From: a virus
Direction: 5' to 3' (one strand)
DNA: 64,000 bases
Virus record (IMG/VR): IMGVR_UViG_3300028384_000675
Span: 28,947-92,946 of that record
Below are positions 3,463 through 43,073 of the stretch, in pieces. The first letter of the stretch is position 1. Every line of letters starts with the position of its first letter. Under the pieces are notes generated by a model, which saw nothing but the letters and a program-made list of their open reading frames with translations, was not told the origin of the DNA and searched no databases. Both the position numbers and the translations under genes were made by a program.

Positions 3463-3796
3463 CAATCACCTTCTCATCATTTTGTTGCAGTAGTCTCTGC
3501 AGGTCAGTGGTACTTCCTATGAAAACATTATTATTAGTGATTGCCTTTTGTTCTTCTTTCTTAGGATCGCTCATTATATCCATGTTCTTTTTATTTAGAT
3601 CCATCAGTTTGTCGGTCACATCAGCGATGTTCTTGATCATGCCGGATAGAACCTCGAACGCACGTGGGTGCTCGCTCTCGCGCGCGACCTCCATCATTAG
3701 GTCCATGCCACGTTTACCGTTCTCAATTAAATCAAGATATGTATCGCGAGAGGTTTCATAATCGTCTTTGATGTTTTTCTTATCTTGATCTGTCAT
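3440..3796 (-). CDS. gp16: Small terminase subunit gp16
   Basis: This 118-residue protein forms the ring that regulates the packaging ATPase. The core segments DYETSRDTYLDLIENGKRG and SEHPRAFEVLSGMIKN, followed by TDKLMDLNKKN, match the conserved helical core of T4 gp16 and its relatives. It is shorter than T4 gp16 (164 residues). It overlaps the 1192-residue gene upstream by four bases and overlaps the start of gene 17 downstream, so translation of the packaging genes is coupled. In T4 gene 16 follows gene 15. Here it follows 33 kb of adhesin genes. Confidence 0.92.
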   Translation of the reverse strand: MTDQDKKNIKDDYETSRDTYLDLIENGKRGMDLMMEVARESEHPRAFEVLSGMIKNIADVTDKLMDLNKKNMDIMSDPKKEEQKAITNNNVFIGSTTDLQRLLQQNDEKVIDASDQDE

Positions 3797-24937: not shown

Positions 24938-25540
24938 TTACTAACCGAAGGAATCAAAAGAAGCACCATCAAACGCAGTTAGTTTAGTCGGTTGAGCAGA
25001 TAGGTCATTGGCGTCATAAACATAGACTGAACCATTGAAATCGTCACCATTTGCACCAACGACGATCTTGTCGGAAGAAGTAGTAATTGAATATCCGAAT
25101 TTATCATTCGCAGCGCCATCAAATGCAGTTAGTTTAGTTGGTTGAGCGGATAGATTGTTGATGTCATAGACATAGACTGAACCAGTGTAAGAATCTTCGC
25201 CGTATGCACCAACAATGATCTTATCAGCAGCAGTAGCAATTGAGATGCCGAAGAAATCGCCCGCAGCACCATCAAATGCTGTTAGTTTAGTTGGTGTTGC
25301 AGATAAATTATTGGCGTCATAGACGTAGACTGAACCAGACTGAGATCCATTGTCATCATCTAGGCGTGCACCAACAATAATCTTATCAGCAGTAGCAAAA
25401 ACATTCTCTCCGAAGCAATCACCTGCAGCAGCATCAAACGCTGTTAGTTTCGTTGGTGTTGCAGACAGATTGTTGGCGTCATAGACATACACTGAACCGG
25501 AACTAGATCCATTGTCGCCGTCACCCCATGCACCAACAAC
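24400..25540 (-). repeat. Near-identical propeller blade repeats
   Basis: Seven blade units of about 150-165 bases, all containing a stretch like CCATCAAACGCAGTTAGTTT on the plus strand (near 24500, 24650, 24800, 24965, 25115, 25265 and 25430). They are far more alike than blades further upstream, which suggests recent duplication or gene conversion. They are also a hazard for short-read assembly. Confidence 0.8.
24938..24943 (-). other. Tandem in-frame stop codons TAG TAA
   Basis: The minus strand reads GGT TAG TAA GTT at the place where other blades have Phe-Gly followed by two residues such as Tyr-Ser or Ile-Ser. The preceding blade uses TAT TCA here, so each stop is one base change away. 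The frame is otherwise intact on both sides. Confidence 0.9.
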
Positions 25541-28500: not shown

Positions 28501-31500
28501 TTGCCCCATCGTATGCTGTTAGTTTCGTTGGTGTCGCAGAAAGATCGTTCGCGTCATAGACATAGGCAGTGCCTGTATTGCTATTATCGCCCCTCGCTCC
28601 GATAACGACCTGACTAGAGGATGCTTCGATTGATATTCCAAACATTTGGTTTTCTGAAGCATCCGGAGATACCAACTTAGTTGGTTGAACAGAAAGGTCT
28701 GACTTATCGAAAACGTATACCGCTCCAGAATTATTTCCGTGATCGTCATCAAACGATCCGACTAATATCTTATCAGCAGTCGTAGCGAATCGATATCCGA
28801 AGTTATCACTCACAGCGCCATCATATGCTGTCAACTTAGTTGGTTGTGCATTAAGGTTATTTATGTCAAAGACATAAACTGCACCGGCATAAGTTGCCTC
28901 TTGATCATCCCAAGAATTTCCGACAATAATTTGATCTTCGGTAACTAGAACACGTTCTCCGAACCTTTTATCTCCTGCTTGATTATGCATATCATATGCT
29001 GTCAGTTTTGTTGGAGTAGCAGAAAGGTTGTTCAAATCGTACACGTAAACTGAACCAGAGTTAGGTTGCCCATCATCATCACCATATGATGTTACAGCTA
29101 ATATATTAGAATTTAAAGAAGAATGCCTGCCGAAGGAATCACCCGCAGCACCATCAAACGCAGTTAGTTTCGTTGGTTGGGCAGATAGATTATTCGCGTC
29201 AAAGACATAAACTGAACCAGAATTAGACCCGTTGTCATCGTCTCCTGCTGCTGACACAACCACATAATTCGTACCAGAGATTACTTCCTCATAACTCCAT
29301 GCGATCGCATCACCTTCTGGATCAGTTCCGACTGCAGTGATCACAGTGTCCTGACCTTGAGTCAACGTGTAAGCAGACTGGATTCCAGTCACCGATGGCG
29401 CTTGGTTGACGTAAGTAAAGTCAAAGTCAGAAGTTGCTGAAGTTGCGTTACCTTCTGAGTCAGTCGCAGTAATGCGTAACTGGAAGTCAGCATCAGCAGT
29501 TCCTGGCGTTACTGTAAACACGTTATCAGATTGTGTTACAGTGACACCGTTGAGTTGTGAAGGAGCAGAAACTGCAGCGACTGCCCAACCGAAACGATCG
29601 TCGTAAGCAGCATCAAATGCGAACAACTTAGTTGGTGCTGCTGATAGATCGTTTCTATCATAAACCCATACTGACCCATTTCTGCCATCGTCCATATTGG
29701 CGCCAATTACAATACTGTCTTCATTTATAGAGATATCTTGTCCGAAGTATTCGGATTCAGTATCGCCATCATCAGGTGCCGTGAGTTTTGTTGGAGCAGC
29801 AGAAAGATCGCTAGTATCATAGACATAAACTGCGCCTTGATAAGCATTACCATTTTCTGATTTTCTTTCTGCACCAACTACAAGAGACCCATGACGTGCA
29901 TCGACCCGCTCTCCAAAGTAACTATTTGACGTTAAATCTGACTCAGTAATAATTGTTGGCGCTGCTGATAGATCACTCAGAGCGTAAGCAAAGACTGCAC
30001 CTTTTCTACCATTATATCCCATGGCACCAACGTAAAGATTAGTGTCATCAGAAGCGAGGTAACAACCTAACTGTAAGTAATCTGTACCATCTTCGAGTTT
30101 TGTTGGTGCTGCTGATAGATCGCTCAGAGAATATACATAAACTGCTCCGTGATTATAAGAACCATGTTGTCGGCAACCAACATAAACATTATTGCTGTCT
30201 ATGTGTACAGCTCTTCCAAATTGATCAGAACTACCGCCATCAGGTGTAACCAACTTGGTAGGAGTTGCACCTAAATTAGAAGCGTCATAGACATAAACTG
30301 CACCGGCATTAGTCGTTTTTGTATCGTCGTTGATTGCAGAGACTACTACATGCGTTTCAGTTGCTGAAATTGCCCAACCCACATTGTCAGACGCAGTTGA
30401 TGGTGATAGTATTGTTGGTGCTGCTGATAGATCGCTTAAATCATAGACGTAGGCGCTACCAAAATTGTTCCCTCCGGTGTCATCGGAATAAGCACCAACG
30501 TAAAGTTTAGTGCTAGTCATAAACATACTCGCACCATAATTGCCGGAAACTGGTGATAATTTAGTTGGTCGAACAGATAAATTGTTAGCATCATAGACAT
30601 AAACTGAACCAGAGTTAGTTCCGTGAACGTCATCGAGCGGTGCACCAACAGCAATATAACTTGATCCAGACTTAACTTCTTCGAACGACCATGTAATCGC
30701 GTCACCTTCTGGATCAGTTGCCGCAGCAGTGATCACAGTATCCTGACCTTGAGTCAGCGTGTAAGCAGACTGGATTCCAGTGACGGTTGGCGCTTGGTTG
30801 ACATAGTCGAAGTTGACCGTTGCTGGTACAGTTGCCGTGTTACCGTTTGAGTCAGTCGCCTTGATGTTCAATGTAAACGAAGCATCCTGAGTTCCTGGCG
30901 TTACTGTGAACACGTTATCAGACTGTGTTACAGTAGTTCCGTTGAGTGCAGATGATAATACATTATATTCATTAACATTCTTAGAGTCATTGTAGTCCGC
31001 AACAAAAACCTTACCAGATCCGAAACCTATACCCAACTCAGAATAATTATATGAGTATTCAGATGGATTGTATGATCCTGCTAAAGCATTTGTACTTAGA
31101 TCATATATCCTCATCTCACCAGAATTATGATTCAGTATCAAATATCCATCAGAGACAGATATCTGTTCAGATATCTGACTACTAGAATATGAAACTACAT
31201 CAGAGAGTCTATTTCCAGTGGTAGCATCGTATACGAAGATGGTTCTTTGGTCCGAAACATAAATCTTATCGTTCGAAATCTCAACATCCGCTATCTCATT
31301 AACTCCATCGAAATCGATTCTAAATGAACCATTTTGATAATCTGTGATGTCTGGATATACAGTTAAGTGTTTTCCATATGAACTCTTGCTAGCCACTACA
31401 ACCTTATTCTCTTCGGATACTATAACTTCTCCCCATTTAGCATATTCTACAGCACCTTGTGGATCAGCAATCCATCCATCTATTTCAGCATATGTGTTTT

Positions 31501-34500
31501 TGTCGTAAATACGAATTGCACCAGATTGGTTTCCTGATTGATGTCTCCCATGAGCACCAACAACAATTCTATCGGTTGTCACAGTGACAGCGAAACCGAA
31601 TTTTTCACCGTTAGATCCAGATGGGTTGTAGATTGATTGGAGTTTATTACCATTCAGGTCTGCAATCACAATACCACCTGCTTGGGTTCCGCCTGTAGGC
31701 GCTAATTGCTCCCCGCCGCTGACAACAATATCGTCCCCAAAGGCAATTGAAGCGCCTAAAAACTGAGATCCGGATGTCGAATCAGGTTCTATTCTATTAA
31801 TCAATTGTCCTGTTTGATGATTGAACAGGAATACTGCTCCTCCATAACTACTATATCCAGTATTACTGATCGCAACGATATCACCGCTTACTTTTACCGT
31901 CTTCCCTGGGCGATCAGAAGACCCCGGATCTGCAAATTTATATGGTGCATAACTGTTTCGAACGAACGATTCAGAAGTTAGAGAAACAGATAGTTGCTCC
32001 TCGAACGACCATGTGATCGCATCACCTTCTGGATCAGTTGCAGCAGCAGTGATCACTGTATCCTGACCCTGAGTCAGCGTATATGCTGCGTCAATACCAG
32101 TAACGGTTGGAGCGAAGTTATGCGCTCTTGCGTCTGCTGTATCATACATTGCAAGAGAAGATCCCAAGAATGCGCGATTAGTTGGATTAGACTGGTGAAT
32201 TGTATTCAGTAGATTACCGCTCATGTCGTATACACGGAGTTCACCAGAAGAAGTCTCTGCTGCATTCTTACCGTAGTCGCCGACAACGATTCTGTTGTTT
32301 GCAACAGAGATTCGAGTGTTGTTGGTAGATGCGATCTTTTGCATATTCGATCCATCAAGGTCGAAGATGTAGAAGTGAGCGGCGTTATCTGAACCGACAA
32401 CAACCTTCTCATGTCCAATTGCGAGACCAGTACCGAAACGGGCAACACTTGTAAGTGCTGGATCGTAGAGTCTTACCTCATTAGATCCATCGAGGTCATA
32501 AAGATAAACCGATCCAGCGAAACTGTTGATTGATCCGCCGTCAGCGATAAACGCAGTAACTGCAATTTTTCCGTTACCAATAGCGATCTCATAATCGCCG
32601 AATTGATCGCTTTCAGTCTGACCATCTGTAGCAGAAATTGTATTTATGAACGTTCCCTGCATGTCATAGATATAAACCTGACCTGAATCTGTAACACCGT
32701 CAGCATCTGCCATTGGAGCGCCGACTACGATTCTTCCATGACCCGCAGCAACTTTCCAACCGAATTTGGTCCAACCGTTCTGACTTCCTGCTCCTGGTAA
32801 TCCAGCAGAAGGTTCAGTAACTTTAATTTCGTTTGAACCATCCAAGTCGTAAATGTAGAATTCCCCTAGTCCAGAACCGCCTTCATAAGTACCGACGATA
32901 ATCTTCCCATCGCTGATTGCGACTGATGTACCGAATAGGGTACTAGGTGCCGAAGGAGTTATCTCTATTGGTTCGTTTGTAGTTGCGAGATCGTATACGA
33001 AGACTCTCTGTTCAGTTCGTTGACCAACAACGAGGATTGTACCGTCGATTGCCATGTTTTCGTCAGCACCGAACTGAGAATCATTATCCATACCTGCTGG
33101 GATGAACAATTCTTTCTCGTTTGATCCGTCAAGGTCAAACGCATACAATTTGTTCGAGTAGTTGTTATTTGATGCTGCTGCAATAATTCTTCCAACAGAA
33201 GTATCATTAACAACTGGTACCGGAATCTCATAATCGAACGTTGGTGTGACCTTAGTAGAATTGCCTTCTGAGTCAGTCGCCTTGATGTTCAATGTAAACG
33301 AAGCATCCTGAGTTCCTGGTGTTACTGTGAATACGTTATCAGATTGTGTGATAGTGACACCGTTGAGTGCAGACGAAGAAACATACCCTACCATATTGTC
33401 ACTAAATGCAACATAAGTATTTGACCCAGAGATTTGATGCGATGTTCCTTGCCCAGTATAGAGATATGTACCAGAACTTAAATCCGCAAAGTCATATACA
33501 TACAATTTTCCGGTGTTATTATTCTCAGTCTTGTCTCCAACAAAGAGTCTATCTCCTGATACGGCAAGATCTGAACCGAATTCATAACCCGTATTGGAAG
33601 GTTTGTATATGATTGCTGGATTGGCACTCAAGTTATTCCTATCGAACACCCATACGCTTCTATCACTTTCTTTCTGGACTATTACATGATCAGAAGAAAG
33701 TGCAACACTTCTACCAAATTTAGCGCTTCTAATAGCAAACAAAGGTACAGATATTGGCGCTGCAGACAAATTTTCAGTATCGTAAATATACGCTGCTCCG
33801 GAGTTTGCCTGAGATCCATTATATTCAAACGGTATACCAACGACAAAATGCGTTCCGAAAGCGGCAATGGAACAGTCTTGTAAAGTTGCAGACGCATTTA
33901 GTACTGTTGGAGACGCAGATAAATCGTCAAGGTCATATACGACCAAAATTCCATAACTTTGACCTGACGCAGTCGACTGCGAACAGATCAACTTATTACC
34001 CGAAACGACGATATTTTCACCAAAATCACGATTCATTGCAGAATTTGGCGAAGTTAGTACTGTCTTGTTAACAGTATACGGATCGACGGTACCAGAACCT
34101 AAATCATTCAGATCAAATACCCATATTGCACCGCGATTGTTTGTTAATGATGGATGACCTACAATTAGGTGATTATCTGTAATTGCAATTGATTCTGCAG
34201 TAGATTGATACTGTATTTCAACTTCATGGGTAGATAAATCATTTAGGTCATATATTCTTATTGAATTACCACGCTTTCCTGCTAATTTACCGCCGCCAAC
34301 AGTCATCATTATCAGAGGATCTTGAATGGTTTCGATTAGTTCCATTGTAGACGGGTTGTACAAATATGTGTCGTAACTGCTTTTAACAAAAACGCCTGAT
34401 CCCAGTACTTCTTCGAACGACCATGTGATTGCATCGCCTTCTGGATCAGTTCCGACTGCTGTGATCACAGTATCCTGACCTTGAGTCAGTTCATATGTTG

Positions 34501-36406
34501 AGTCAACGCCAGCAATTACTGGTGGTTGATTGACATATATGATGTTAGTTGTTACAGATGTTGTGTTGTCTTCAGTGTCAGTCGCAGTAATACGCAAGTT
34601 GAAATCTGCATTTTTCATTTCTGCTGTTGGTGTCACTGTAAACGTGTTATCAGATTGCGTGATAGTGACGCTGCTCGCTGGAGCAGTGTTTGCTGAAACT
34701 CTAATTCCAAAGAAATCCCGATATCCACCATCGAATGCTGTTAACTTGGTTGGTGCTGCGGATAGATCGTTTAGATCATAAACATAAGTCGAACCGGCTT
34801 GATTTTCACTATAACTCGATCCGACGATAACATGATCGTCAGTTATCGCAACATCTGATCCGAAAAATTCGAATTCAGAGTCGCCGTCATCTCCCACATA
34901 CAATTGAGTCGGTTGAGCAGAAAGGTCGCTTAGGTCAAAGACGTAAACAGCACCTTGATACACTTGTCCATCCATTGTTTTTCTATGGGCAGCGATTACA
35001 GCAAAATTTTCGTTCGCTACAATCCTATCTCCGAAGTTGTCTCGACCATGACTAGTTGGTGGAGACGATCCATCAAACGCTGTTAGTTTCGTTGGTTCGG
35101 CAGAAAGGTCGTTTAGGTCATAGACATAAACTGCACCAGTATCGATACCTAGATCGTCGTCACCCACGGCGCCAACAAACAATTTACTGCTTGTCAATTC
35201 AATGTCGGCACCAAATTGGTGCGCGGCACCAGTGTACTGGTTTGTCAACAAATCACTTGGCACGATTTCAGTTGGAGCGGCAGAAAGATCGTTTATATCA
35301 TAAAGGTATACTATACCTTCGTCGACGGTGGGATTCCCAGCATCGTTTGTTCCATCCACCCTAGACACGCCGACAGCAAGATAACTTTCGTTCAAAGACA
35401 TATATTCTCCGAACTTATGTTGATTGCCGCGCGGATCTTCGAGTATCTTAATTGGATCAGCAGACAAATCATTCAAGTCGTAAACATATACAGCACCTTT
35501 GGATCCATTTGACGTACTGATATACCCATCGAACGCACCAACCACAAGTTTGTTACTATTGACAGCGATACGCTTTCCAAATACAGTCCACTCTCCTTGA
35601 TCAGGTGGAACTATTTTTATTGGATCAGCAGAAAGGTCGCTGGTGTCATAAACATAAACTGCGCCGCCGGCACTGAGACCGGAGTCAGTTTTGACATAAG
35701 AACTAATGAAAAGTCTTTCAGGAGTAACTAAAACGTCGCCCGCACCAAACTGATCACTCGCAGCACCATCAAATGCTGTCAACTTAGTTGGCGCTACAGA
35801 TAAATTGTTTGCATCATAGACATAAACTGCACCAGCGTTAGATCCTTTATCATCGTCACCACTTGACGTTACAACTATATAACCGCCGCTTCTAAGTTCT
35901 TCGAACGACCATGTGATCGCATCACCTTCTGGGTCAGTACCAACTGCAGTAATTACGGTGTCCTGACCATATGTCAGATTGTAAGTAGATTGGATTCCAG
36001 AAACGAATGGTGGGAAGTTGATCATCAATTCTGGTTGGAATGATATTGAATCGATTACGTAATCATTCTTACCGTACCAACCAGTGTGGAATTTAAGGTC
36101 TGGATTGTAGTCTGCTGCGGTAGGTCGCATTGATACTGTATCGAGATCAACCGAATCCTTACCATAAATTCCAGTGTGGAATTTAAGGTCTGGATTATAT
36201 GTGGCGTCCGTTGGTTGTAACGATATTGAATCGATTACATAACCGTCACCCTTACCATACCATCCAGTGTGGTATTTTAAATCTTCATTATAATCTGCGG
36301 AAACTGGTCTAATCGAAGTTGTAACGACTACGACTTCCTCTATCTCTGCTTCAAACCAGCTTTGCTTACTTCCTGCTAATGCCGACGTTAGGTGTCTAAA
36401 GCGCAT
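24941..36406 (-). CDS. Giant integrin-like FG-GAP propeller adhesin (3821 aa before stops)
   Basis: This is a huge modular protein. It begins with three short repeats (SISLQPTDATYNPDLKFHTG type). About eight FG-GAP beta-propellers follow, with blades such as DQFGAGDVLV and KLVVGAFDG plus GAVYVYDLNDLSA. They are separated by cadherin/Ig-like linkers (QSDNVFTVTPGTQDASFTL, NQAPSVTGI, YTLTQGQDTVITA, TDPEGDAITWSFEE). Four linkers occur in a row near residues 2730-3090. Some blades hold calcium-loop-like DDDNGSNSG motifs, as in integrin alpha chains. GGGAGAG precedes the ATG. No signal peptide is seen, as expected for a virion protein. It probably forms a long bead-like fibre. Two stop codons cut the last propeller (see the following continuation). 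The copies near the C-terminus are almost identical in DNA. Confidence 0.85.
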   Translation of the reverse strand: MRFRHLTSALAGSKQSWFEAEIEEVVVVTTSIRPVSADYNEDLKYHTGWYGKGDGYVIDSISLQPTDATYNPDLKFHTGIYGKDSVDLDTVSMRPTAADYNPDLKFHTGWYGKNDYVIDSISFQPELMINFPPFVSGIQSTYNLTYGQDTVITAVGTDPEGDAITWSFEELRSGGYIVVTSSGDDDKGSNAGAVYVYDANNLSVAPTKLTAFDGAASDQFGAGDVLVTPERLFISSYVKTDSGLSAGGAVYVYDTSDLSADPIKIVPPDQGEWTVFGKRIAVNSNKLVVGAFDGYISTSNGSKGAVYVYDLNDLSADPIKILEDPRGNQHKFGEYMSLNESYLAVGVSRVDGTNDAGNPTVDEGIVYLYDINDLSAAPTEIVPSDLLTNQYTGAAHQFGADIELTSSKLFVGAVGDDDLGIDTGAVYVYDLNDLSAEPTKLTAFDGSSPPTSHGRDNFGDRIVANENFAVIAAHRKTMDGQVYQGAVYVFDLSDLSAQPTQLYVGDDGDSEFEFFGSDVAITDDHVIVGSSYSENQAGSTYVYDLNDLSAAPTKLTAFDGGYRDFFGIRVSANTAPASSVTITQSDNTFTVTPTAEMKNADFNLRITATDTEDNTTSVTTNIIYVNQPPVIAGVDSTYELTQGQDTVITAVGTDPEGDAITWSFEEVLGSGVFVKSSYDTYLYNPSTMELIETIQDPLIMMTVGGGKLAGKRGNSIRIYDLNDLSTHEVEIQYQSTAESIAITDNHLIVGHPSLTNNRGAIWVFDLNDLGSGTVDPYTVNKTVLTSPNSAMNRDFGENIVVSGNKLICSQSTASGQSYGILVVYDLDDLSASPTVLNASATLQDCSIAAFGTHFVVGIPFEYNGSQANSGAAYIYDTENLSAAPISVPLFAIRSAKFGRSVALSSDHVIVQKESDRSVWVFDRNNLSANPAIIYKPSNTGYEFGSDLAVSGDRLFVGDKTENNNTGKLYVYDFADLSSGTYLYTGQGTSHQISGSNTYVAFSDNMVGYVSSSALNGVTITQSDNVFTVTPGTQDASFTLNIKATDSEGNSTKVTPTFDYEIPVPVVNDTSVGRIIAAASNNNYSNKLYAFDLDGSNEKELFIPAGMDNDSQFGADENMAIDGTILVVGQRTEQRVFVYDLATTNEPIEITPSAPSTLFGTSVAISDGKIIVGTYEGGSGLGEFYIYDLDGSNEIKVTEPSAGLPGAGSQNGWTKFGWKVAAGHGRIVVGAPMADADGVTDSGQVYIYDMQGTFINTISATDGQTESDQFGDYEIAIGNGKIAVTAFIADGGSINSFAGSVYLYDLDGSNEVRLYDPALTSVARFGTGLAIGHEKVVVGSDNAAHFYIFDLDGSNMQKIASTNNTRISVANNRIVVGDYGKNAAETSSGELRVYDMSGNLLNTIHQSNPTNRAFLGSSLAMYDTADARAHNFAPTVTGIDAAYTLTQGQDTVITAAATDPEGDAITWSFEEQLSVSLTSESFVRNSYAPYKFADPGSSDRPGKTVKVSGDIVAISNTGYSSYGGAVFLFNHQTGQLINRIEPDSTSGSQFLGASIAFGDDIVVSGGEQLAPTGGTQAGGIVIADLNGNKLQSIYNPSGSNGEKFGFAVTVTTDRIVVGAHGRHQSGNQSGAIRIYDKNTYAEIDGWIADPQGAVEYAKWGEVIVSEENKVVVASKSSYGKHLTVYPDITDYQNGSFRIDFDGVNEIADVEISNDKIYVSDQRTIFVYDATTGNRLSDVVSYSSSQISEQISVSDGYLILNHNSGEMRIYDLSTNALAGSYNPSEYSYNYSELGIGFGSGKVFVADYNDSKNVNEYNVLSSALNGTTVTQSDNVFTVTPGTQDASFTLNIKATDSNGNTATVPATVNFDYVNQAPTVTGIQSAYTLTQGQDTVITAAATDPEGDAITWSFEEVKSGSSYIAVGAPLDDVHGTNSGSVYVYDANNLSVRPTKLSPVSGNYGASMFMTSTKLYVGAYSDDTGGNNFGSAYVYDLSDLSAAPTILSPSTASDNVGWAISATETHVVVSAINDDTKTTNAGAVYVYDASNLGATPTKLVTPDGGSSDQFGRAVHIDSNNVYVGCRQHGSYNHGAVYVYSLSDLSAAPTKLEDGTDYLQLGCYLASDDTNLYVGAMGYNGRKGAVFAYALSDLSAAPTIITESDLTSNSYFGERVDARHGSLVVGAERKSENGNAYQGAVYVYDTSDLSAAPTKLTAPDDGDTESEYFGQDISINEDSIVIGANMDDGRNGSVWVYDRNDLSAAPTKLFAFDAAYDDRFGWAVAAVSAPSQLNGVTVTQSDNVFTVTPGTADADFQLRITATDSEGNATSATSDFDFTYVNQAPSVTGIQSAYTLTQGQDTVITAVGTDPEGDAIAWSYEEVISGTNYVVVSAAGDDDNGSNSGSVYVFDANNLSAQPTKLTAFDGAAGDSFGRHSSLNSNILAVTSYGDDDGQPNSGSVYVYDLNNLSATPTKLTAYDMHNQAGDKRFGERVLVTEDQIIVGNSWDDQEATYAGAVYVFDINNLNAQPTKLTAYDGAVSDNFGYRFATTADKILVGSFDDDHGNNSGAVYVFDKSDLSVQPTKLVSPDASENQMFGISIEASSSQVVIGARGDNSNTGTAYVYDANDLSATPTKLTAYDGATSDMFGQHVAISSDKVVVSAYADDDRGAQSGSVYVFDANDLSAQPTKLTAFDGAATDMFGTGLAVTSEQIIVGAYGGPGSTYTGVVYVYDINDLSAQPTRLTAYDGAGADYFGYSVSANNLSSQLNGVTVTQSDNVFTVTPAQQDATFQLTFKATDSNGNVTSTTSDFDFTYVNQAPSLGGIEPAYTLTQGVNEVIVPVVSDAEGETVTMSYEEVLGEGVPSGMNGTTVTQNGNDFTVTPGQQDANFTLRFTATDESGNQTNFDSEFTLDYNDAPSITGVDSSYTLDQGQDTEITVTTSDSDGDTVSLTYAVTSGDLSGTTVTQAGNVFTITPGDQDATFQLTFTATDTNGAATTATSDITFDYNAAPVITGIESVYTLTQGVDEVIVGMSSDADGDAVTWSFAEVLNGGVPSGLNGTAITQNGGEFTVTPGTADANFTIRFTLTDTAGNTDTRDADFSLTYVNQAPSVTGIDSTYTLTQGQGTVITAAATDPEGDTVTWSYEAVSSTSQDQLFVSAIQSNSYQGYVYVYNPTDLTEEPTLLTAPNGSSAERFGFSMEIDSDKIYIGEMMSDESDETWGGAVYIYDRSDLSAAPTMLTGEAQNNLRFGSGISVTDDLLIIGAYGWGPTTNSNDDYTGKVYIYNKSDLSLQATLTPTNGDHRDYFGLGGGITVTSNHILIGSMGDDDNSTDAGAVYVYDVNTYAFVQKLTAPDASESDRFGGYSIKTYGGKIYISAVTADHNSNGTSGGAVYVYNESDLSFVEKLVAFDAAEGDYFGMSVLPHEDKLFVGAHQRNSSAGAIYVYNINNLSAAPTVLESPATGAMLGYNTTIIGDKLYSSAHRKDASTGGMYVYILSDLSAAPELVNPPAGTGTSISFGFNAVGSVAPSPLGDVTVAQSDNVFTVTPGQQDADFQLTFKATDSEGNVTSVSSDFDFTYVNQAPSVTGIESSYLLTAGGSGTAITAVGTDPEGDAITWSYEEVASGSSYVVVGAWGDGDNGSSSGSVYVYDANNLSATPTKLTAFDAAAGDCFGENVFATADKIIVGARLDDDNGSQSGSVYVYDANNLSATPTKLTAFDGAAGDFFGISIATAADKIIVGAYGEDSYTGSVYVYDINNLSAQPTKLTAFDGAANDKFGYSITTSSDKIVVGANGDDFNGSVYVYDANDLSAQPTKLTAFDGASFDSFG

Positions 36407-36473: not shown

Positions 36474-36932
36474 TTAAACTTCTATTGCTTCGCCAACATA
36501 AGCGCCATAGATCGAAGAACCTACTTTCCAGAGGTTAATAATATGTGTTCCAGCGGTGCTAATAGTGTCAGGCGCTTCACCATTAATCCACTTGGTGGTT
36601 GGCCATGTAATAGCGTGATTATTGCTTTCGATATGAAGTGTAATGCTTTCGCCTGATGCCCAACCTGCTGCATATGAATATGTTGTTGCGCCTGACAGCG
36701 TGTGAACTGCGAGACTTCCGTTAGATGGGTCGATCGAAACTGATGTTCCGTTAAGCGAATCAACGCCTTCAACATAGTTATCAGCAGTTACTGATCCAGA
36801 AAAGGTTGAAGGGACAAGATCTGATACAGTAATTTTCTTAGATACATCCTCACTAACGTCAACGATTGCTACTACGTCGTCGTTTGATGGGGATCCTGAG
36901 AGTTGTGGAAGATCTGTGAATTTAATTGCCAT
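36474..36932 (-). CDS. Small fibre-like protein D with the shared anchor
   Basis: A 152-residue protein. Residues 1-45 are the anchor seen in other fibres (IKFTDLPQLSGSPSNDDVVAI, VSEDVSKKITVSDL). The remaining ~100 residues form a small beta domain (NNHAITWPTTKWINGEAP, ending YGAYVGEAIEV) of the type found at the tip of many marine phage fibres. AGGAG precedes the ATG. It lies just before the FG-GAP giant and may help attach it to the baseplate, which is inference from position and the shared anchor. Confidence 0.7.
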   Translation of the reverse strand: MAIKFTDLPQLSGSPSNDDVVAIVDVSEDVSKKITVSDLVPSTFSGSVTADNYVEGVDSLNGTSVSIDPSNGSLAVHTLSGATTYSYAAGWASGESITLHIESNNHAITWPTTKWINGEAPDTISTAGTHIINLWKVGSSIYGAYVGEAIEV

Positions 36933-37104: not shown

Positions 37105-37818
37105 CTAAGATAAGGCGCTGTCTTCGATGCTGCTAAAAATTTCAGAACCATCCAGATTCAGGGTGTCAACGTCATATTGTGTAATGACAGGTTGATTCCT
37201 TGAAGCATCTTTATATAGGTTTATTTTCATTTCGAAATCTAGCGTGTAGATGATAGTTCTTCTTGCTTCGAGAACTGCCTCGTAATCGTCAGAAAATGTG
37301 ACACCCTGTAATGTAATTGGTGTATCTTCTTTGACGTCATCAAAATCTGATAGCGGATTCACAGTAAGAGTATAGTGAGGTGTGAAGTATGGTAGGACTT
37401 GCTCAACCACTTGTAATGCATCGTCCTGGGACTTTGCATAGATGTTCAATTGAAAGTTAATATTGTATGGTGAAGGACTGTATAACTTAGTGCGAGTGCT
37501 CTCAGTATCCGTGTCACCTCCCTTTGGGCAGAAGTTCATTTTCGGTAATTGCCGCGATGGGTCGTATTGCATTGCTACAATCTCAAATGACATACGAGGC
37601 AATTTGATCGCGATCTGACGTTCGTCTGCTCCAGCAGCATTCAATTGATCAATACGTGCTAGGAAATCTCTTCTTGGACCATAGGATAATGGGACCTTGG
37701 TTTCGCTCAAAATATTACCGGAACTGTTTTTACGAATAATATGAATGTCATTGAACAGCGTACCGAATACAGCAACCGCTTTTCGTATTCTTTGATTGTA
37801 GAAATGATCACCGAACAT
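37105..37818 (-). CDS. gp15: Tail sheath terminator / tail completion protein gp15
   Basis: A 237-residue orthologue of T4 gp15 (272 residues), the hexameric ring that caps the sheath and tube and joins the tail to the neck. The start MFGDHFYNQRIRKAVAVFGT matches the MFGYHFYN start of T4-like gp15 proteins, and the segment NINFQLNIYAKSQDDALQVVEQVLPYF is also characteristic. The gene overlaps the stop of gene 14 by one base, so translation is coupled. In T4 gene 16 follows. Here the adhesin block begins instead. Confidence 0.92.
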   Translation of the reverse strand: MFGDHFYNQRIRKAVAVFGTLFNDIHIIRKNSSGNILSETKVPLSYGPRRDFLARIDQLNAAGADERQIAIKLPRMSFEIVAMQYDPSRQLPKMNFCPKGGDTDTESTRTKLYSPSPYNINFQLNIYAKSQDDALQVVEQVLPYFTPHYTLTVNPLSDFDDVKEDTPITLQGVTFSDDYEAVLEARRTIIYTLDFEMKINLYKDASRNQPVITQYDVDTLNLDGSEIFSSIEDSALS

Positions 37819-38459
37819 TAGGTTGGATCTCCGAATGGGTTACTTTCAGTAAAGTCAATGATTGAGTCACCAACTTCTTCAAAGTCATTGTTCTGCGCTT
37901 CGACTGGTAAACTCTCTGCCGAGTCACCATCATTGATGTCATCAAGGTCAGCGATACCTGTGTCGAAGTCTTCTTTATTGTATTCAAAGAGTTCACAACG
38001 TAGTTTGAACACTGGCAGGTTCTTTAATTGAAAGAACGGTTGCTGCGTTTCACAACGTGTGATCTCAAAGATAGAGTTAGAGAGTGTCAGATAAATCAGA
38101 TCGCCCTCGCGTGGGCGCGCGAACGATTCAGTTGCTGTTTGTTCATGATACGCAACGGTTGTATTCCATCGGCGTTTTGCTACAACGAATGTGGCAGCAT
38201 CACGAATCTCAACGCCGAACTTAGTGAACAGATCACCTTCTCCATCGAACCCTTCCGTATTCTCAATGTACATCTCAATTTTATATGCGTTATCGAATCT
38301 CGACACTGAGTCATCAACAAAGATTCGGTCGCGATCTACAATCTCACGTGGAATGTAATAGACATCCTGCCCATACATCTTGAGTGATTCAATGATTATA
38401 TCTTCGTAGAGAAGTTGTTCGCTACGAGTGCCTTGTGAGAAGTAAGGATTCGTGCTCAT
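37818..38459 (-). CDS. gp14: Neck protein gp14
   Basis: A 213-residue neck protein that with gp13 closes the filled head and binds the tail. It begins MSTNPYFSQGTRSEQLLYED and contains YGQDVYYIPRE, the conserved N-terminal region of T4-like gp14. The C-terminal 50 residues are acidic and end NPFGDPT. The frame is open 31 codons further upstream, but the ATG at 38459 starts the conserved region and lies seven bases after the gp13 stop, so I use it. T4 gp14 is 256 residues. Confidence 0.9.
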   Translation of the reverse strand: MSTNPYFSQGTRSEQLLYEDIIIESLKMYGQDVYYIPREIVDRDRIFVDDSVSRFDNAYKIEMYIENTEGFDGEGDLFTKFGVEIRDAATFVVAKRRWNTTVAYHEQTATESFARPREGDLIYLTLSNSIFEITRCETQQPFFQLKNLPVFKLRCELFEYNKEDFDTGIADLDDINDGDSAESLPVEAQNNDFEEVGDSIIDFTESNPFGDPT

Positions 38460-38466
38460 ATTATCA

Positions 38467-39219
38467 TTATCCCATAAAGAAGTCGACAGGCAGTTCGTAT
38501 TCAGAACGAATCTTCTCATCGAGTCTTTCGATTTCGCTGTTCGCATCTTCAAGTATCTGACGACCGTTCAGTGTCACCCCACCAGGAAGTTGCATACCCT
38601 CGAACTTAATCAGGTTCATACCCCACTGTTGTTTGATCAGCGCAGTGGTATATTCCTTCAACCAGATATCATTCCAGACAGCAGTGTGATCGTTCTCGTT
38701 AATGATCTGGAATGCTTCTGCGATTAGGAACTGACCTTCTGAAATATCACGGTCTTCGATGTTTCCGTGCAAATACAAACGCCCTTGCTTGCGCGAGAAT
38801 GTAGTCAGCGGAGTTCCGTCCAATAACATATCGAGGAAGTCGAGATACTGTTCTAATTGATAATAGTACGACATCCCGCCAGCAAAGTTCATGAAATCGC
38901 CCAGACTGTTTAACATCATCTGATAGCGAATATCAAACATATTGACGTTTGCGTATGTTGGACTTAGAGGGAAAACTTTTGTGAGGTAAACGATCTCGTC
39001 AGAGACAGGAATGTACTTGTTGGCAATATCATCAGCAGTCATCTGATGTTTTAAGAAGATGCGCACAGTAGCATCGCTATGGTATTCGCGATACTTCTGT
39101 AACGCATCGTCTACTTTGTCTTCAATCTGATCGGGATCAACGTTGACCTCGATCACTGGCTCGCCTAATTTCCTCAGGCAATAGTCAATAAAAGTTTGTC
39201 TTGAGTTAGGTGATGCCAT
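38467..39219 (-). CDS. gp13: Neck protein gp13
   Basis: A 250-residue head-completion (neck) protein. The segments QTFIDYCLRKLGEPVIEVNV and VDDALQKYREYHSD, followed by EYTTALIKQQWGMNLIKFEG, match T4-like gp13 (T4: 309 residues). The ATG at 39219 is chosen over that at 39231 because GGAG sits at the right distance before it and overlaps the upstream ATG. A late promoter lies 32 bases upstream. It heads the gene 13-14-15 operon. Confidence 0.92.
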   Translation of the reverse strand: MASPNSRQTFIDYCLRKLGEPVIEVNVDPDQIEDKVDDALQKYREYHSDATVRIFLKHQMTADDIANKYIPVSDEIVYLTKVFPLSPTYANVNMFDIRYQMMLNSLGDFMNFAGGMSYYYQLEQYLDFLDMLLDGTPLTTFSRKQGRLYLHGNIEDRDISEGQFLIAEAFQIINENDHTAVWNDIWLKEYTTALIKQQWGMNLIKFEGMQLPGGVTLNGRQILEDANSEIERLDEKIRSEYELPVDFFMG

Positions 39220-39251
39220 GAAGCACTCCATTGGTATAAACGATTCTCATC

Positions 39252-39259
39252 TATTTATA
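39252..39259 (-). promoter_or_regulatory. Late promoter of the gene 13-14-15 operon
   Basis: TATAAATA on the minus strand, 32 bases upstream of the gp13 ATG at 39219. Confidence 0.8.
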
Positions 39260-39276
39260 CTTATACAAAACACCCT

Positions 39277-41004
39277 TTATTGAATGGTATATTCCTCACC
39301 AGATTGAGAAATAAATTCAATTCCCAACTGCGAACCATATATGGTTTCAACGCCAAGATCCGGATCTGGTGCAAGACCACCGCCATTGTTTCCAGTATCA
39401 ACGCCCGTGTCAACACCCGAACCTGCTCCTGATCCAGGAGTAGTTTTGACTGAAACTAAACTAAATGGACTGTCAACACCGTATCGACTAAACAGGAACT
39501 TGTTCGGGCCACCCACCAAACTTCCGGTGGTTGTCACGTAATCGCTGTTCCTTGACGTATCTTCAATCATATCGTCAACAGCATCAGCAATCATTTTCCT
39601 CTTAAGTTTTGCCGGAGAAATATTAGGTTGACTTTGCAGGTGTAGTGCTGCCACACCGGCAACCTGAGGTGCTGCCTGACTGGTACCATCAAGAACCATG
39701 ATCTTATAATTAGGGTCTTCTGGGTATGCCAGAGTAGAACGACTTGAAGCAACTGTATTACTTGCCGCACTCATAATGTTAGTACCTGCTGCCCACATAT
39801 TAACTGCAGGACCACGGTTACTATTTTGCGCCGCACCATCTGTTGAAGAACCAGCAACACGAGGTTCGTTGGAAACGTTACCGACAAAGAATGCATCTTC
39901 GTGATACGGAGACGCCGGACGATGATAATAATATGTGTTGCCGTTGATCGTTACAGAGTTGTTGTAATCATCACCACCAGAAACATCTGCTTTGTAGTAT
40001 CCATTACCTGCAGAAATACAGACGTGAATACCAGCATCGATCATTTCCTCAATCTCCACATCATATGCAGTTATTTGCGCAGGAATAGAACGATTTCCGT
40101 TGCTAAACTTACTGACGATACCAAACTGAGAGTAAAGCGTAGAATCCGATTGACCACTATAGTTCCAAGAAGATCCACGATAAACACCAGAAGTAGGGTT
40201 TAGTGAAGTTGCGTGACGAACACCCCAACTCATATTAACAATCGTTGGACGACCGTTAGTCTTAGAATTGTGCCAGAGGCGAATCATATCAAATGCAGTT
40301 GATGGTGAAGTGCCGAACGGAACACCGCCAGTACCGCCAAGATCTACAATCTTTTGAGAATAAATGTGAGCACCTTTCGCCCAACCGTATGTTTTACCGG
40401 CAGCAATCGCAGCAACGTGAGTACCGTGACCGTCGGTGTCAGTGTAGTGATCCGGATGTTGCGATCCAGAGATACCGCTTTCTGCATACCAATCAATTTG
40501 TTGTAGGCGTGAGTTGCCCTCAGCATCTTGCCATTCAGGGTGATCTGCTTGAATACCAGTATCCTGAATAACAACATCGACACCAGCACCGTTCAGCGCG
40601 AAAACGTAATCACTCTCAAGGTTTTCGTTTACGTCTTCTTGACCGAAGTAAATATTAGTTCTGGCATTTGAGCGTCTCAACCCCCAGTTAACATTCGATG
40701 CAGTTGGTGCGCCTTTTCTCTTAAATCTACCGCCACGCTTTGCTTTTGCGTCGAGGGTAAATTCGATATCGTCTCTCATGTGTGGCGGTATCTCAACCGC
40801 AAGAACACGCTGATCAGATTGAAGCGTTGCCGCTTCTTCTTCTGTCAACATCCAATGCGTCATACGCTTAGAACCCTCGCGAGGGTCAGCAACTTGTACT
40901 GCACGATTAGGGATTGGAGAATCCCCAGTCGCAGCAGCAAGTTCTGCGTCGAACGCTGCTAAGTCCACTCCTTTGTGGACAATTACTACATATTCTTTTT
41001 CCAT
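39277..41004 (-). CDS. Subtilisin-like serine protease (peptidase S8)
   Basis: A 575-residue subtilase with a complete catalytic set: Asp148 (VVIQDTGIQ), His193 (DTDGHGTHVA), the oxyanion Asn334 (SAGNG) and Ser442 (LDGTSQAAPQVAG). Residues 1-75 (KEYVVIVHKGVDLAAF to LAVEIPP) look like an I9-type inhibitory propeptide. A basic stretch KAKRGGRFKRKG (87-98) could be the maturation site. No signal peptide is seen, so it acts in the host cell or in the virion. The C-terminus has a Gly/Thr-rich linker (SGVDTGVDTGNNGGG). AAGGGGGG precedes the ATG. It lies between a fibre protein and the neck operon, so it may process virion proteins or act on the host surface. Its substrate is unknown. It is not the usual T4 prohead protease gp21. 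Confidence 0.92.
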   Translation of the reverse strand: MEKEYVVIVHKGVDLAAFDAELAAATGDSPIPNRAVQVADPREGSKRMTHWMLTEEEAATLQSDQRVLAVEIPPHMRDDIEFTLDAKAKRGGRFKRKGAPTASNVNWGLRRSNARTNIYFGQEDVNENLESDYVFALNGAGVDVVIQDTGIQADHPEWQDAEGNSRLQQIDWYAESGISGSQHPDHYTDTDGHGTHVAAIAAGKTYGWAKGAHIYSQKIVDLGGTGGVPFGTSPSTAFDMIRLWHNSKTNGRPTIVNMSWGVRHATSLNPTSGVYRGSSWNYSGQSDSTLYSQFGIVSKFSNGNRSIPAQITAYDVEIEEMIDAGIHVCISAGNGYYKADVSGGDDYNNSVTINGNTYYYHRPASPYHEDAFFVGNVSNEPRVAGSSTDGAAQNSNRGPAVNMWAAGTNIMSAASNTVASSRSTLAYPEDPNYKIMVLDGTSQAAPQVAGVAALHLQSQPNISPAKLKRKMIADAVDDMIEDTSRNSDYVTTTGSLVGGPNKFLFSRYGVDSPFSLVSVKTTPGSGAGSGVDTGVDTGNNGGGLAPDPDLGVETIYGSQLGIEFISQSGEEYTIQ

Positions 41005-41023
41005 GGTTCAAACCCCCCTTGGA

Positions 41024-41650
41024 TTAGAATTCGTAGATCGTTACAGTAAGTGTTCCCGTCTCTAGCGGATCGCCGTTCTCTTTGTAGATATATCCAAGGT
41101 CAACATAACCTGTTGAGCGGTTGACCGGAATAAATGCGCCAGCATAATAATCCATCATTGTTACCATAACTGCATAATCTTCTACACTAGTAAACGCTGA
41201 TGGGAATGTTAAACGGAAAGTTGCTTCGCTTTGACGAGAAGCAGTAATACCAACAGAACCTGTCCACGCTGGAGCGTTTGAACCGTTCAACTTCAGCATG
41301 CCGCCGTAGGTTGGAAGCGGAACGCCATTCGCTGTAACTGCATCAGAAGCAGTAAAGTTGATGCTGCTTGCGCTGTTCAGATTAAATGGACCAGTGCCTG
41401 TACTGACTAAAGTCGAGATAGAAAGGTCCCCAGTGAAAGATACATCAGGGTTAAATATTACATTCGCATTACCAGTTGTATTGATAGTAGCACTGTCGAA
41501 TACGAAAGAACCAACTTCTGATGTACCAGAAAGAAGATCTGCGACTGTGATTTGCTTCGAAGCGTCTTCGCTGACATCAGTGATCAGAATTACATCTGTG
41601 TCCGCTGGCGTCCCAACAAGTTGTGTTAATTCGGTGATTTTTGTTGACAT
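41024..41650 (-). CDS. Small fibre-like protein C with the shared anchor
   Basis: A 208-residue protein. The anchor occupies residues 1-42 (TKITELTQLVGTPADTDVILI, VSEDASKQITVADLL) and is close to that of fibre protein D. A short beta-strand shaft (INTTGNANVIFNPDVSF) and a C-terminal beta domain (ASRQSEATFRLTFPSAF, ending GTLTVTIYEF) follow. GGGAG precedes the ATG and a late promoter lies 61 bases upstream. The protease gene follows after 19 bases and has no promoter word of its own, so the two are probably co-transcribed. Confidence 0.7.
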   Translation of the reverse strand: MSTKITELTQLVGTPADTDVILITDVSEDASKQITVADLLSGTSEVGSFVFDSATINTTGNANVIFNPDVSFTGDLSISTLVSTGTGPFNLNSASSINFTASDAVTANGVPLPTYGGMLKLNGSNAPAWTGSVGITASRQSEATFRLTFPSAFTSVEDYAVMVTMMDYYAGAFIPVNRSTGYVDLGYIYKENGDPLETGTLTVTIYEF

Positions 41651-41711: not shown

Positions 41712-41719
41712 TATTTATA
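41712..41719 (-). promoter_or_regulatory. Late promoter of fibre protein C and the protease
   Basis: TATAAATA on the minus strand, 61 bases upstream of the ATG at 41650, five bases from the stop of the YadA-like fibre. Confidence 0.75.
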
Positions 41720-41723
41720 AATT

Positions 41724-43073
41724 TTATCCCGTTGAAACTTTAAGAGTTCCGCCATCGTTCCAAAGTTGACCCGCATTTACTGGATCTGCTGTAGGTAATG
41801 CGCTGAATATAACCACACCGCTTGATGTAAGATCGGTCATTGTAACACCAGCACCAAACGTCCAATCGTTTGTAGTGTCGTATGTTAATGAACCAGCGGC
41901 AGATGTACGAATATCGATGCCGAACTGAGTTGCGACGATAGAGTTCGCGCCTGTTGCTGCAAGAGCGATAGTATTATTCGCATTCGCTTTAGCACCACGA
42001 CCAAGCGCCAGAGAAGCGTTACCTGTCGCGCCAGCAAATGGACCAATTGCAATGCTTTCGGTTCCTGTTGTCACAGAAGCATTAGAACCAATGGCGACAC
42101 TCGCTTGAGATGCTGCGGCAGTTTGACCGATCGATATACCTTGCGCTCCTGACACTTCAGTATTAGAACCAATGGCAATACCGTCAGTGTTTACATTAGT
42201 GTCAGCAGACACTCCGATTGCGATTGCATTTGTTGCTAACGCCTGCGCCGAATTTCCTAATGCTACGCTACTACTACCTGTAGCATCTGTCCCATTACCG
42301 ATTGCGACAGATCGTGATCCTGACGCTACTGATGATGTTCCCATAGCAATTGTATCTGCTTGAGATGACGTTGCTGATCTTCCGATAGCAATTGCGTCTT
42401 CATAAGTAGCATTTGATCCTCTACCCAATGAAAGAGTAAAGAGTGCAGTTGCGTTAGCATCATAACCGATAGCGATGGCATCCGCACCCGTTGCGTCAGC
42501 GAGATAACCGATAGCAACTTCGCCAGATGTATTTTGAGTTGTCGCACCTTCACCAAGTCTAATTGATTGCTGATTATCAAAGACTGATTGTACACCAGCA
42601 GAGTCTAAACCGCCACTGGCAGCAGGTGCTCGTGCCGCAACATAGTCTGAATCAACTGTTGCTGGGATATCCGCAGCAGTAATGTAGTTAGTGTCATTGG
42701 TAAATGAACTGAGCGCAGTTGGTGCGCCTGTCAGAGAAGAATATGCAAAGTCTTGTGGGGTCTGACGTGCTTGGACGTATGGTGCATCAACTGTCGAGAG
42801 TATCTCACTATTCGCGATAGACTGCGCAGTTGCCGAGTCGATTCCTACACCGTCAAGTGTAACCCTTGCTTGAACATAGTCGCTATCTACAATTCCGATT
42901 ACGTCAGCAGAGTCGAACCCATTTGCTGCCGGAGATCGCGCCGCAACATAATCAGAATCTATCAAATCAATAACAGCGGCAGAGTCGAGAGCACCAGCAG
43001 GAACAATGCTTCGAATCTGAGTTCCTGTTACAATATTTTCAACAACGTATTTGGAGAATTTATTCGTGGACAT
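41724..43073 (-). CDS. Tail fibre B with YadA-head-like repeats
   Basis: A 449-residue fibre. Residues 1-170 contain several DSDYVAAR/DSDYVQAR units and the marine-phage segment FAYSSLTGAPTALSSFTNDTNYI. Residues ~180-385 are 14-16-residue units of the type AIGxxANAx, SVAIGNGTDATGSS and SVALGNSAQA. This is the left-handed beta-roll of YadA-like trimeric adhesin heads. The last ~60 residues include LTSSGVVIFSALPTADPVNAGQLWNDGGTLKVS, a frequent phage fibre end. AAAGG precedes the ATG. It starts nine bases after the stop of the 118-residue gene and shares its promoter. Confidence 0.8.
   Translation of the reverse strand: MSTNKFSKYVVENIVTGTQIRSIVPAGALDSAAVIDLIDSDYVAARSPAANGFDSADVIGIVDSDYVQARVTLDGVGIDSATAQSIANSEILSTVDAPYVQARQTPQDFAYSSLTGAPTALSSFTNDTNYITAADIPATVDSDYVAARAPAASGGLDSAGVQSVFDNQQSIRLGEGATTQNTSGEVAIGYLADATGADAIAIGYDANATALFTLSLGRGSNATYEDAIAIGRSATSSQADTIAMGTSSVASGSRSVAIGNGTDATGSSSVALGNSAQALATNAIAIGVSADTNVNTDGIAIGSNTEVSGAQGISIGQTAAASQASVAIGSNASVTTGTESIAIGPFAGATGNASLALGRGAKANANNTIALAATGANSIVATQFGIDIRTSAAGSLTYDTTNDWTFGAGVTMTDLTSSGVVIFSALPTADPVNAGQLWNDGGTLKVSTG

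What the first reader, a model, noticed from the sequence alone, without database searches (positions are those of the whole stretch)
39277..41004. Intact subtilase among virion genes
A full S8 protease (Asp148, His193, Asn334, Ser442) with an inhibitor-like propeptide lies between fibre and neck genes and has no signal peptide. T4 uses gp21 for head maturation, not a subtilase. It might cleave giant fibres to maturity, act from the virion on host surface proteins or be released at lysis.
Basis: partly seen in the sequence, partly recalled or inferred. Interest (0 to 1): 0.65.

Follow-up and report, generated by a model that had tools for sequence, protein, structure and literature searches.

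The report
Active subtilase in marine phage virion
A marine T4-like phage carries, beside a small tail-fibre gene, an intact digestive-type protease belonging to a large and little-studied phage family; it most likely rides on the virus particle and cuts proteins on the host surface.

Summary
ORF 39277-41004 (-), 575 aa, is a subtilase (Pfam E 2.5e-27) with D148/H193/N334/S442 exactly where stated. The model shows an ordered prodomain followed by a proteinase K-type catalytic domain; no signal peptide is visible. It is not unique: 45 of 50,697 phage records and hundreds of marine viral stretches encode relatives. The catalytic residues are kept in 93 of 93 full-length relatives. The gene nearly always abuts a fibre or baseplate-connector gene (gap of 30 nt or less in 89 of 93); here it shares a T4-type late transcription unit with a 208-aa fibre. 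The S-SCSM1 homologue is labelled a virion protein in a record whose labels track published virion mass spectrometry. C-termini are exchangeable modules. Close relatives share the prodomain but differ in catalytic domain and fibre tip. A gp21-type protease and an S74 fibre autoprotease are also present. Best reading: a tail-periphery zymogen that cuts host-surface protein. Fibre maturation and release at lysis remain open. It is a new member of an annotated but functionally uncharacterised family.

The parts
39277..41004 (-). Subtilase (peptidase S8) gene, 575 aa
   Evidence: ORF; PF00082 E 2.5e-27; PHROG 9158 E 8.8e-63
40747..41004 (-). N-terminal inhibitor-like prodomain, aa 1-86
   Evidence: Predicted strand-helix-strand-strand-helix-strand order; aligned together with the catalytic domain to zymogens 3whi, 3afg, 1r6v and PCSK9 5vla
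40696..40746 (-). Linker aa 87-103, likely autocleavage region
   Evidence: pLDDT < 50 over residues 89-103; model residue 103 aligns with residue 4 of mature aqualysin I. The cleavage itself is inference
39472..40695 (-). Catalytic domain aa 104-511
   Evidence: Z 35.7 to 5wsl, 35.6 to aqualysin I 4dzt
40561..40563 (-). Catalytic Asp148 codon
   Evidence: 93 of 93 D
40426..40428 (-). Catalytic His193 codon
   Evidence: 93 of 93 H
40003..40005 (-). Oxyanion-hole Asn334 codon
   Evidence: 93 of 93 N
39679..39681 (-). Catalytic Ser442 codon
   Evidence: 93 of 93 S
39280..39471 (-). Gly/Asp-rich C-terminal tail aa 512-575, predicted disordered
   Evidence: pLDDT < 50 over residues 512-575; found only in L004-L006 besides the window
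41013..41020 (-). Ribosome-binding sequence AAGGGGGG of the subtilase gene
41024..41650 (-). 208-aa fibre-type partner gene, ending 19 nt before the subtilase start
   Evidence: phrog_16570 E 1.5e-9; C-terminal 80 residues match virion proteins of S-SCSM1 and S-TIM5
41712..41719 (-). T4-type late promoter octamer TATAAATA, 62 nt before the partner gene
39252..39259 (-). Next late promoter octamer, 21 nt before the gp13-like gene; bounds the fibre + subtilase unit
41724..43073 (-). YadA-head-repeat fibre, 449 aa (context)
   Evidence: PF05658 E 2.7e-22
38467..39231 (-). Head-tail adaptor gp13-like (context)
   Evidence: phrog_211 E 2.9e-40
37818..38552 (-). Neck protein gp14-like (context)
   Evidence: PF11649 E 4.1e-33
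37105..37818 (-). Tail sheath stabiliser gp15-like (context)
   Evidence: PF16724 E 1.5e-65

Best explanation
The gene encodes a catalytically competent subtilase with a proteinase K-type fold. It is made late in infection together with a small fibre protein, as a zymogen whose inhibitor-like prodomain keeps it folded and quiet in the cytoplasm. It is built into, or rides on, the tail or baseplate periphery, and after autocleavage and loss of the prodomain outside the cell it cuts protein on the host surface during adsorption. Its logic resembles that of a tailspike depolymerase, but for protein. Shown here: intact conserved enzyme, late unit with a fibre, fibre-coupled position across the family, a homologue labelled as virion protein, exchangeable C-terminal modules, mosaic divergence of the catalytic domain. 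Inferred: attachment in this virus, activation step, and the host-surface substrate.
For: Triad and oxyanion Asn in 93 of 93 full-length relatives; low dN/dS. Zymogen-like fold. Late promoter octamer before the partner and the next before gp13, none between partner and protease. Upstream gene same strand 92 of 93, gap <= 30 nt 89 of 93; 48 of 90 upstream proteins hit a tail-fibre PHROG and others hit T4 gp9/10-type connector families. SSCSM1_228 labelled virion protein; [quoted passage not shown] C-terminal modules: ConA-like lectin E 2.3e-26, weak esterase-family hits, Gly-rich domain, cupredoxin in 14 of 97 shared with tail-fibre-like proteins. Against L005/L006 the prodomain DNA is 84-88% identical and the gp13 start 89%, but the catalytic domain 67-68% and the fibre body 57-60%; the most variable catalytic segment is the insertion 265-310 (entropy 2.38 bits against 1.11-1.26 around His and Asp).
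Against: No proteomics for this virus. 48 labels against 45 reported proteins means a given label may be wrong; SSCSM1_228 is a 1411-aa fusion, so peptides could come from its lectin part. S-CREM1 has a homologue but only 14 virion proteins were detected and I could not see the list. 59 of 93 relatives have no added C-terminal domain, so how they would attach is unknown; the prodomain was not found on other virion proteins. No host or substrate is known.
Confidence: 0.5

Rival explanations
1. Fibre-maturation protease: it cuts the adjoining fibre or another tail protein during assembly and may or may not stay in the particle.
For: Tight coupling to a fibre gene; late expression; a virion label for one homologue would also fit a retained assembly protease.
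Against: The upstream partner is not one protein: 69 of 93 fall into one loose modular cluster and the rest into 12 other groups; related proteases (72-74% identical) can have unrelated partners. Giant fibre 11763-22550 has its own S74 domain. Lectin, cupredoxin and esterase-like modules on the protease are not expected of a maturase. A gp21-type protease is present as well.
Confidence: 0.22
2. Free protease released at or after lysis, digesting host debris or surface proteins in the surrounding water.
For: Many relatives are just prodomain plus catalytic domain with no anchor (59 of 93), like secreted bacterial subtilases.
Against: Position inside a virion operon next to fibres rather than lysis genes; virion label for SSCSM1_228; fusions to ConA-like lectin and fibre-type modules.
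Confidence: 0.13
3. Intracellular effector that digests host proteins during infection.
For: No signal peptide (sequence), so it is made in the cytoplasm.
Against: Late promoter and virion-gene context; prodomain as in extracellular zymogens.
Confidence: 0.08
4. Inactive structural domain, like the so-called subtilisin-like domain of phage tail sheaths that lacks the triad.
For: A tail sheath with such a triad-less domain is described for a Bacillus phage (PMC13118943, passages seen).
Against: Pfam finds PF00082 only and no sheath family; D/H/N/S kept in 93 of 93; zymogen prodomain retained.
Confidence: 0.04

Closest known systems
Cyanophage S8 peptidases (PHROG 9158; P-SSM2 PSSM2_297 = T4-GC 292; S-H38, S-CREM1, S-WAM2, S-H9-1 genes)
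   Same: Same order of prodomain and catalytic domain, triad kept, same place 3' of a fibre or baseplate-connector gene
   Different: 23-35% identical over the matched parts; several carry extra C-terminal modules, the window protein only a short Gly/Asp-rich tail
SSCSM1_228 of Synechococcus phage S-SCSM1
   Same: N-terminal part is a homologous subtilase, 29-30% identical, triad kept; followed two genes on by a lectin protein whose C-terminus resembles the window's 208-aa partner
   Different: 1411 aa with C-terminal ConA-like lectin domains; annotated baseplate wedge subunit (virion protein)
Proteinase K/aqualysin-type subtilases and PCSK9
   Same: Catalytic fold Z 31-36; prodomain aligned as in zymogens, including PCSK9
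   Different: Those are secreted with signal peptides (recalled); the window protein has an extra variable stretch 265-310 and only one Cys
T4 gp21 prohead protease (S77)
   Same: Phage-encoded serine protease used with the virion
   Different: Unrelated family; a separate S77 gene is in the same record, E 2.0e-44
Endosialidase chaperone autoprotease (S74)
   Same: Fibre-linked protease in phages
   Different: Autocatalytic C-terminal domain of the fibre itself; present here on the giant fibre 11763-22550
Tailspike depolymerases
   Same: Works like: tail-borne enzyme with a conserved N-terminus and a variable enzymatic part (inference)
   Different: Degrade polysaccharide, trimeric beta-helices (recalled); no membership claimed

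Membership tests
Peptidase family S8 (subtilases, PF00082) | Significant match to the family profile | tested here: met
   E 2.5e-27, 96.4 bits against cut-off 21.8
Peptidase family S8 (subtilases, PF00082) | Asp/His/Ser triad in order D-H-S plus oxyanion Asn | tested here: met
   D148, H193, N334, S442; 93 of 93 full-length relatives
Peptidase family S8 (subtilases, PF00082) | Subtilisin fold | tested here: met
   AlphaFold2 model pLDDT 79.2, pTM 0.83; Z 35.7 over 273 residues to 5wsl
Peptidase family S8 (subtilases, PF00082) | Proteolytic activity | not testable with these tools
   Needs expression and assay
Inhibitor_I9 propeptide | Sequence match to the Pfam family | tested here: not met
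   Only PF00082 matched at E <= 0.01; hence called I9-like, not a member
Inhibitor_I9 propeptide | Small alpha/beta domain packed before the catalytic domain as in zymogens | tested here: met
   Model residues 1-509 aligned to 3whi_A (Z 32.0, 337 residues), 1r6v (Z 31.1, 360 residues)
PHROG 9158 | Profile match over prodomain and catalytic domain | tested here: met
   E 8.8e-63, residues 1-509
Phage tail-sheath subtilisin-like domain | Match to a sheath family and absent triad | tested here: not met
   No sheath family for this protein; triad present
Virion protein of a T4-like phage | Present in purified particles | tested here: inconclusive
   Not testable for this virus; homologue SSCSM1_228 labelled virion protein, 48 labels against 45 proteins reported by mass spectrometry
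T4 gp21-type head protease (S77) | PF03420 match | tested here: not met
   The subtilase does not match; a separate gene does

The most novel reading that the evidence does not exclude
Marine T4-like viruses widely carry a protein-cutting counterpart of tailspike depolymerases: a virion-mounted zymogen whose conserved prodomain also serves as the docking piece, while the catalytic domain is exchanged and diversifies like a receptor-binding tip, with lectin, cupredoxin or esterase modules added at the C-terminus to target or assist it.
Probability: 0.25. Interest if true: 0.8.

Novelty: new member of a known kind. Interest (0 to 1): 0.5.

Why it matters
If right, many marine T4-like viruses carry an active general-type protease on the particle, so protein layers on marine bacteria would be degraded at infection as polysaccharide capsules are by tailspikes. 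It would also explain how a protease without a signal peptide can act outside: it leaves the cell on the virion, held quiet by its prodomain. It makes the role of a gene family long listed as 'hypothetical' or 'subtilisin-like protease' in cyanophages directly testable in cultured phages.

Tried and rejected
Rejected: a chance ORF. A tail-sheath 'subtilisin-like' domain. A replacement of gp21. A shared C-terminal virion tag: the last 29-30 residues of the window protein and its two relatives L005/L006, as a profile, matched only the subtilases of L004-L006 and the window with significance. The prodomain as an anchor used by other virion proteins: of 120 hits among 5,992 stop-to-stop frames, 119 were subtilases and one was a subtilase cut by a contig end; the idea stays only as part of the novel case.

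Led nowhere or weak: the TATAAATA octamer lies within 120 nt of the upstream fibre gene in only 4 of 89 relatives examined, and in 0 of 89 within 60 nt of the subtilase start, so the two-gene late unit is shown only for the window. Prodomain against catalytic identity over all 93 relatives is nearly equal (mean 0.48 against 0.46; prodomain higher in 2,535 of 4,278 pairs); the contrast is strong only among close relatives. No outside control for how fast prodomains evolve was run; that secreted subtilases usually have the less conserved prodomain is recalled. Against L004 itself the prodomain (92%) is less alike than the catalytic domain (97%).

Rows dropped: of 116 loci with the subtilase, 97 had distinct main sequences; four partial or remote ones (L027, L028, L115, L121) were dropped before the 93-row counts. 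Second tandem copies were not counted; one of them, in L025, has Glu in the Asp column. For downstream genes 55 of the 84 same-strand proteins were given to the profile scan; for upstream genes 90 of 93. ORF starts are mechanical, so gaps are approximate.

Papers: PMC9602691 (passages and section 13), PMC9964418, PMC3037559, PMC10665884, PMC13118943 and PMC9004378 (passages); all other papers only as search listings. Searches showed no paper on the role of this protease in virions; that is a statement about this open-access library only. Supplementary tables could not be read, so the S-CREM1 and S-SM1 proteomics lists were not seen.

Full report
What is there. The ORF 39277-41004 on the minus strand encodes 575 aa. 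Pfam finds a subtilase at E 2.5e-27 over residues 139-476, and PHROGs finds phrog_9158, a family without assigned function, at E 8.8e-63 over residues 1-509. The stated residues D148, H193, N334 and S442 are exact and sit in the canonical motifs. A ribosome-binding sequence AAGGGGGG precedes the ATG. The protein begins MEKEYVVIV, with no hydrophobic leader by inspection.

Architecture. An AlphaFold2 model from 18 aligned relatives has mean pLDDT 79.2 and pTM 0.83. Residues 1-86 form a small, mostly ordered alpha/beta domain, 89-103 are disordered, about 104-511 are the catalytic domain, and 512-575 are disordered. The catalytic part aligns with keratinase 5wsl (Z 35.7, 2.3 A, 273 residues), aqualysin I (Z 35.6) and proteinase K (Z 33.8). 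Prodomain and catalytic domain together align with zymogens such as pro-subtilisin E 3whi (Z 32.0, 337 residues), fervidolysin 1r6v (Z 31.1, 360 residues) and PCSK9 5vla (Z 30.8, 320 residues). Pfam Inhibitor_I9 itself was not matched at E <= 0.01, so the prodomain is I9-like in fold only. Residue 103 aligns with residue 4 of mature aqualysin I, which suggests cleavage close to residue 100 (inference).

Surroundings. Neighbours are virion genes of a T4-like virus: gp15, gp14 and gp13 types downstream; upstream a 208-aa fibre-type protein and a YadA-head-repeat fibre; further on a DUF4815 protein, gp8, gp6-type wedge, gp25, gp5-type lysozyme and gp53-type proteins. The last 80 residues of the 208-aa partner match virion proteins of S-SCSM1 and S-TIM5. 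The octamer TATAAATA (T4 late promoter consensus, recalled) occurs 13 times on the coding strand and never on the other; 11 of 13 lie 10-100 nt before the start of an ORF of at least 100 aa, against a random mean of 0.58 and maximum of 4 in 2,000 draws. One octamer lies 62 nt before the 208-aa gene and the next 21 nt before gp13, with none between the partner and the subtilase. The two genes therefore appear to form one late unit.

Relatives. tblastn found the protein in 45 of 50,697 phage records, mostly cyanomyoviruses, plus Agrobacterium phage Atu_ph07, Sinorhizobium phage Phosso and Acinetobacter phage MD-2021a. In 84,980 bacterial and archaeal species genomes only four loci turned up among 166 pattern matches, all on MAG contigs. 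This looks like a virus-borne lineage. The four catalytic residues are kept in 93 of 93 full-length relatives. Against the 95%-identical relative L004 dN is 0.027 and dS 0.42.

Coupling to fibres. Among 97 loci with distinct proteases, 93 have a gene called upstream; it is on the same strand in 92 and within 30 nt in 89, with a median gap of 1 nt. Of 90 such upstream proteins, 48 match tail-fibre family phrog_9729 and others match baseplate-connector families; 3 are second subtilases. Pfam adds FG-GAP repeats (9), Mtd_N (4) and T4 gp9/10 N-terminal (4). Of 55 downstream proteins scanned (of 84 on the same strand), 26 match a baseplate wedge tail-fibre connector family.

Virion status. In the S-SCSM1 record the homologous gene SSCSM1_228 (1411 aa, subtilase plus ConA-like lectin) is annotated 'baseplate wedge subunit (virion protein)'. 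The paper reports 45 proteins detected by mass spectrometry in CsCl-purified virions (PMC9602691, section 13). I counted 48 CDS with the label in the record. The label is given to the non-structural NMNAT that the text lists as detected, and withheld from several structural homologues (SSCSM1_17, 211, 215, 218, 245), so it tracks detection rather than annotation. The mismatch of three and the fusion with a lectin leave the point short of proof. S-CREM1 also has a homologue, but its list of 14 detected proteins could not be seen.

Modules. Of 93 proteases with a recognised active-site serine motif, 59 end within 105 residues after the serine, 19 have 106-250 more and 15 more than 250. The added parts include a ConA-like lectin (E 2.3e-26), a Gly-rich domain (E 5.9e-8), DUF7483 (E 6e-37) and weak esterase-family hits below cut-off. 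Fourteen of 97 carry a cupredoxin-like domain with the His-Cys-His-Met ligand set; its model (pLDDT 91.8) matches cupredoxin domains of copper nitrite reductase and laccases and rusticyanin at Z 9.5-11.1. The same domain occurs in tail-fibre-like proteins of cyanophages. The window protein has none of these, only a Gly/Asp-rich tail.

Mosaic divergence. Compared with relatives L005 and L006, the prodomain DNA is 84-88% identical and the start of gp13 89%, whereas the catalytic domain is 67-68% and the body of the partner fibre 57-60%. At protein level gp13 is 95-98% identical, the prodomain 86-90%, the catalytic domain 65-68%. Across the family the most variable catalytic segment is the stretch 265-310 (mean entropy 2.38 bits, against 1.26 and 1.11 around Asp and His). 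That this stretch lies near the substrate cleft is inference from subtilase topology. Conserved front part and exchanged working part is the pattern of receptor-binding proteins, and suggests that the substrate is on the host rather than a conserved virion part. The contrast is clear only among close relatives; over all pairs it nearly vanishes.

Other proteases in the virus. The record carries a gp21-type S77 protease (E 2.0e-44) and a gp23-type capsid protein. The giant fibre 11763-22550 ends in an S74 endosialidase chaperone domain (E 1.5e-15). Head maturation and maturation of that fibre therefore have their own enzymes.

Conclusion. The most likely reading is a tail-periphery zymogen acting on host-surface protein (0.5). 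Fibre maturation (0.22), free release at lysis (0.13) and intracellular action (0.08) remain. As a protein it is a new member of an annotated but functionally uncharacterised phage family. The family-wide pattern put together here was not found in the papers searched, which covers only the open-access library held.

Noticed in passing
window 775-3465 (-): The large terminase gene appears split: N-terminal part 2494-3465 and C-terminal part 775-1560 with a homing-endonuclease ORF 1863-2585 between them. Intron, split gene or inteinless insertion was not resolved.
   Followed up: no
L065:7525-7899, L095:7576-7932 and 12 other subtilase loci: A cupredoxin-like domain with complete His-Cys-His-Met ligands is fused behind phage subtilases in 14 of 97 loci and also found in tail-fibre-like proteins. 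Why a virion would carry a copper-type domain is unexplained.
   Followed up: partly
L016, L117, L024/L025: Tandem pairs of subtilase genes; the first copy in L025 has Glu in the catalytic Asp column, perhaps a degenerate partner.
   Followed up: no
window 24941-36406 (-): 3821-aa giant protein with some 20 FG-GAP repeats (E 6e-235) and Ig-like domains.
   Followed up: no
window 11763-22550 (-): 3595-aa giant fibre ending in a Peptidase_S74 chaperone domain.
   Followed up: partly
window 36474-36932 and 41024-41650 (-): Two small proteins share an N-terminal motif (K[FI]T[DE]LxQLxGxPxxxDVxxIxDVSEDxSKxITVxDLL), probably a common docking piece (by eye).
   Followed up: no
L039, L064: Subtilases with an alpha/beta-hydrolase (esterase-like) domain behind the catalytic part; Pfam hits below cut-off.
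   Followed up: no
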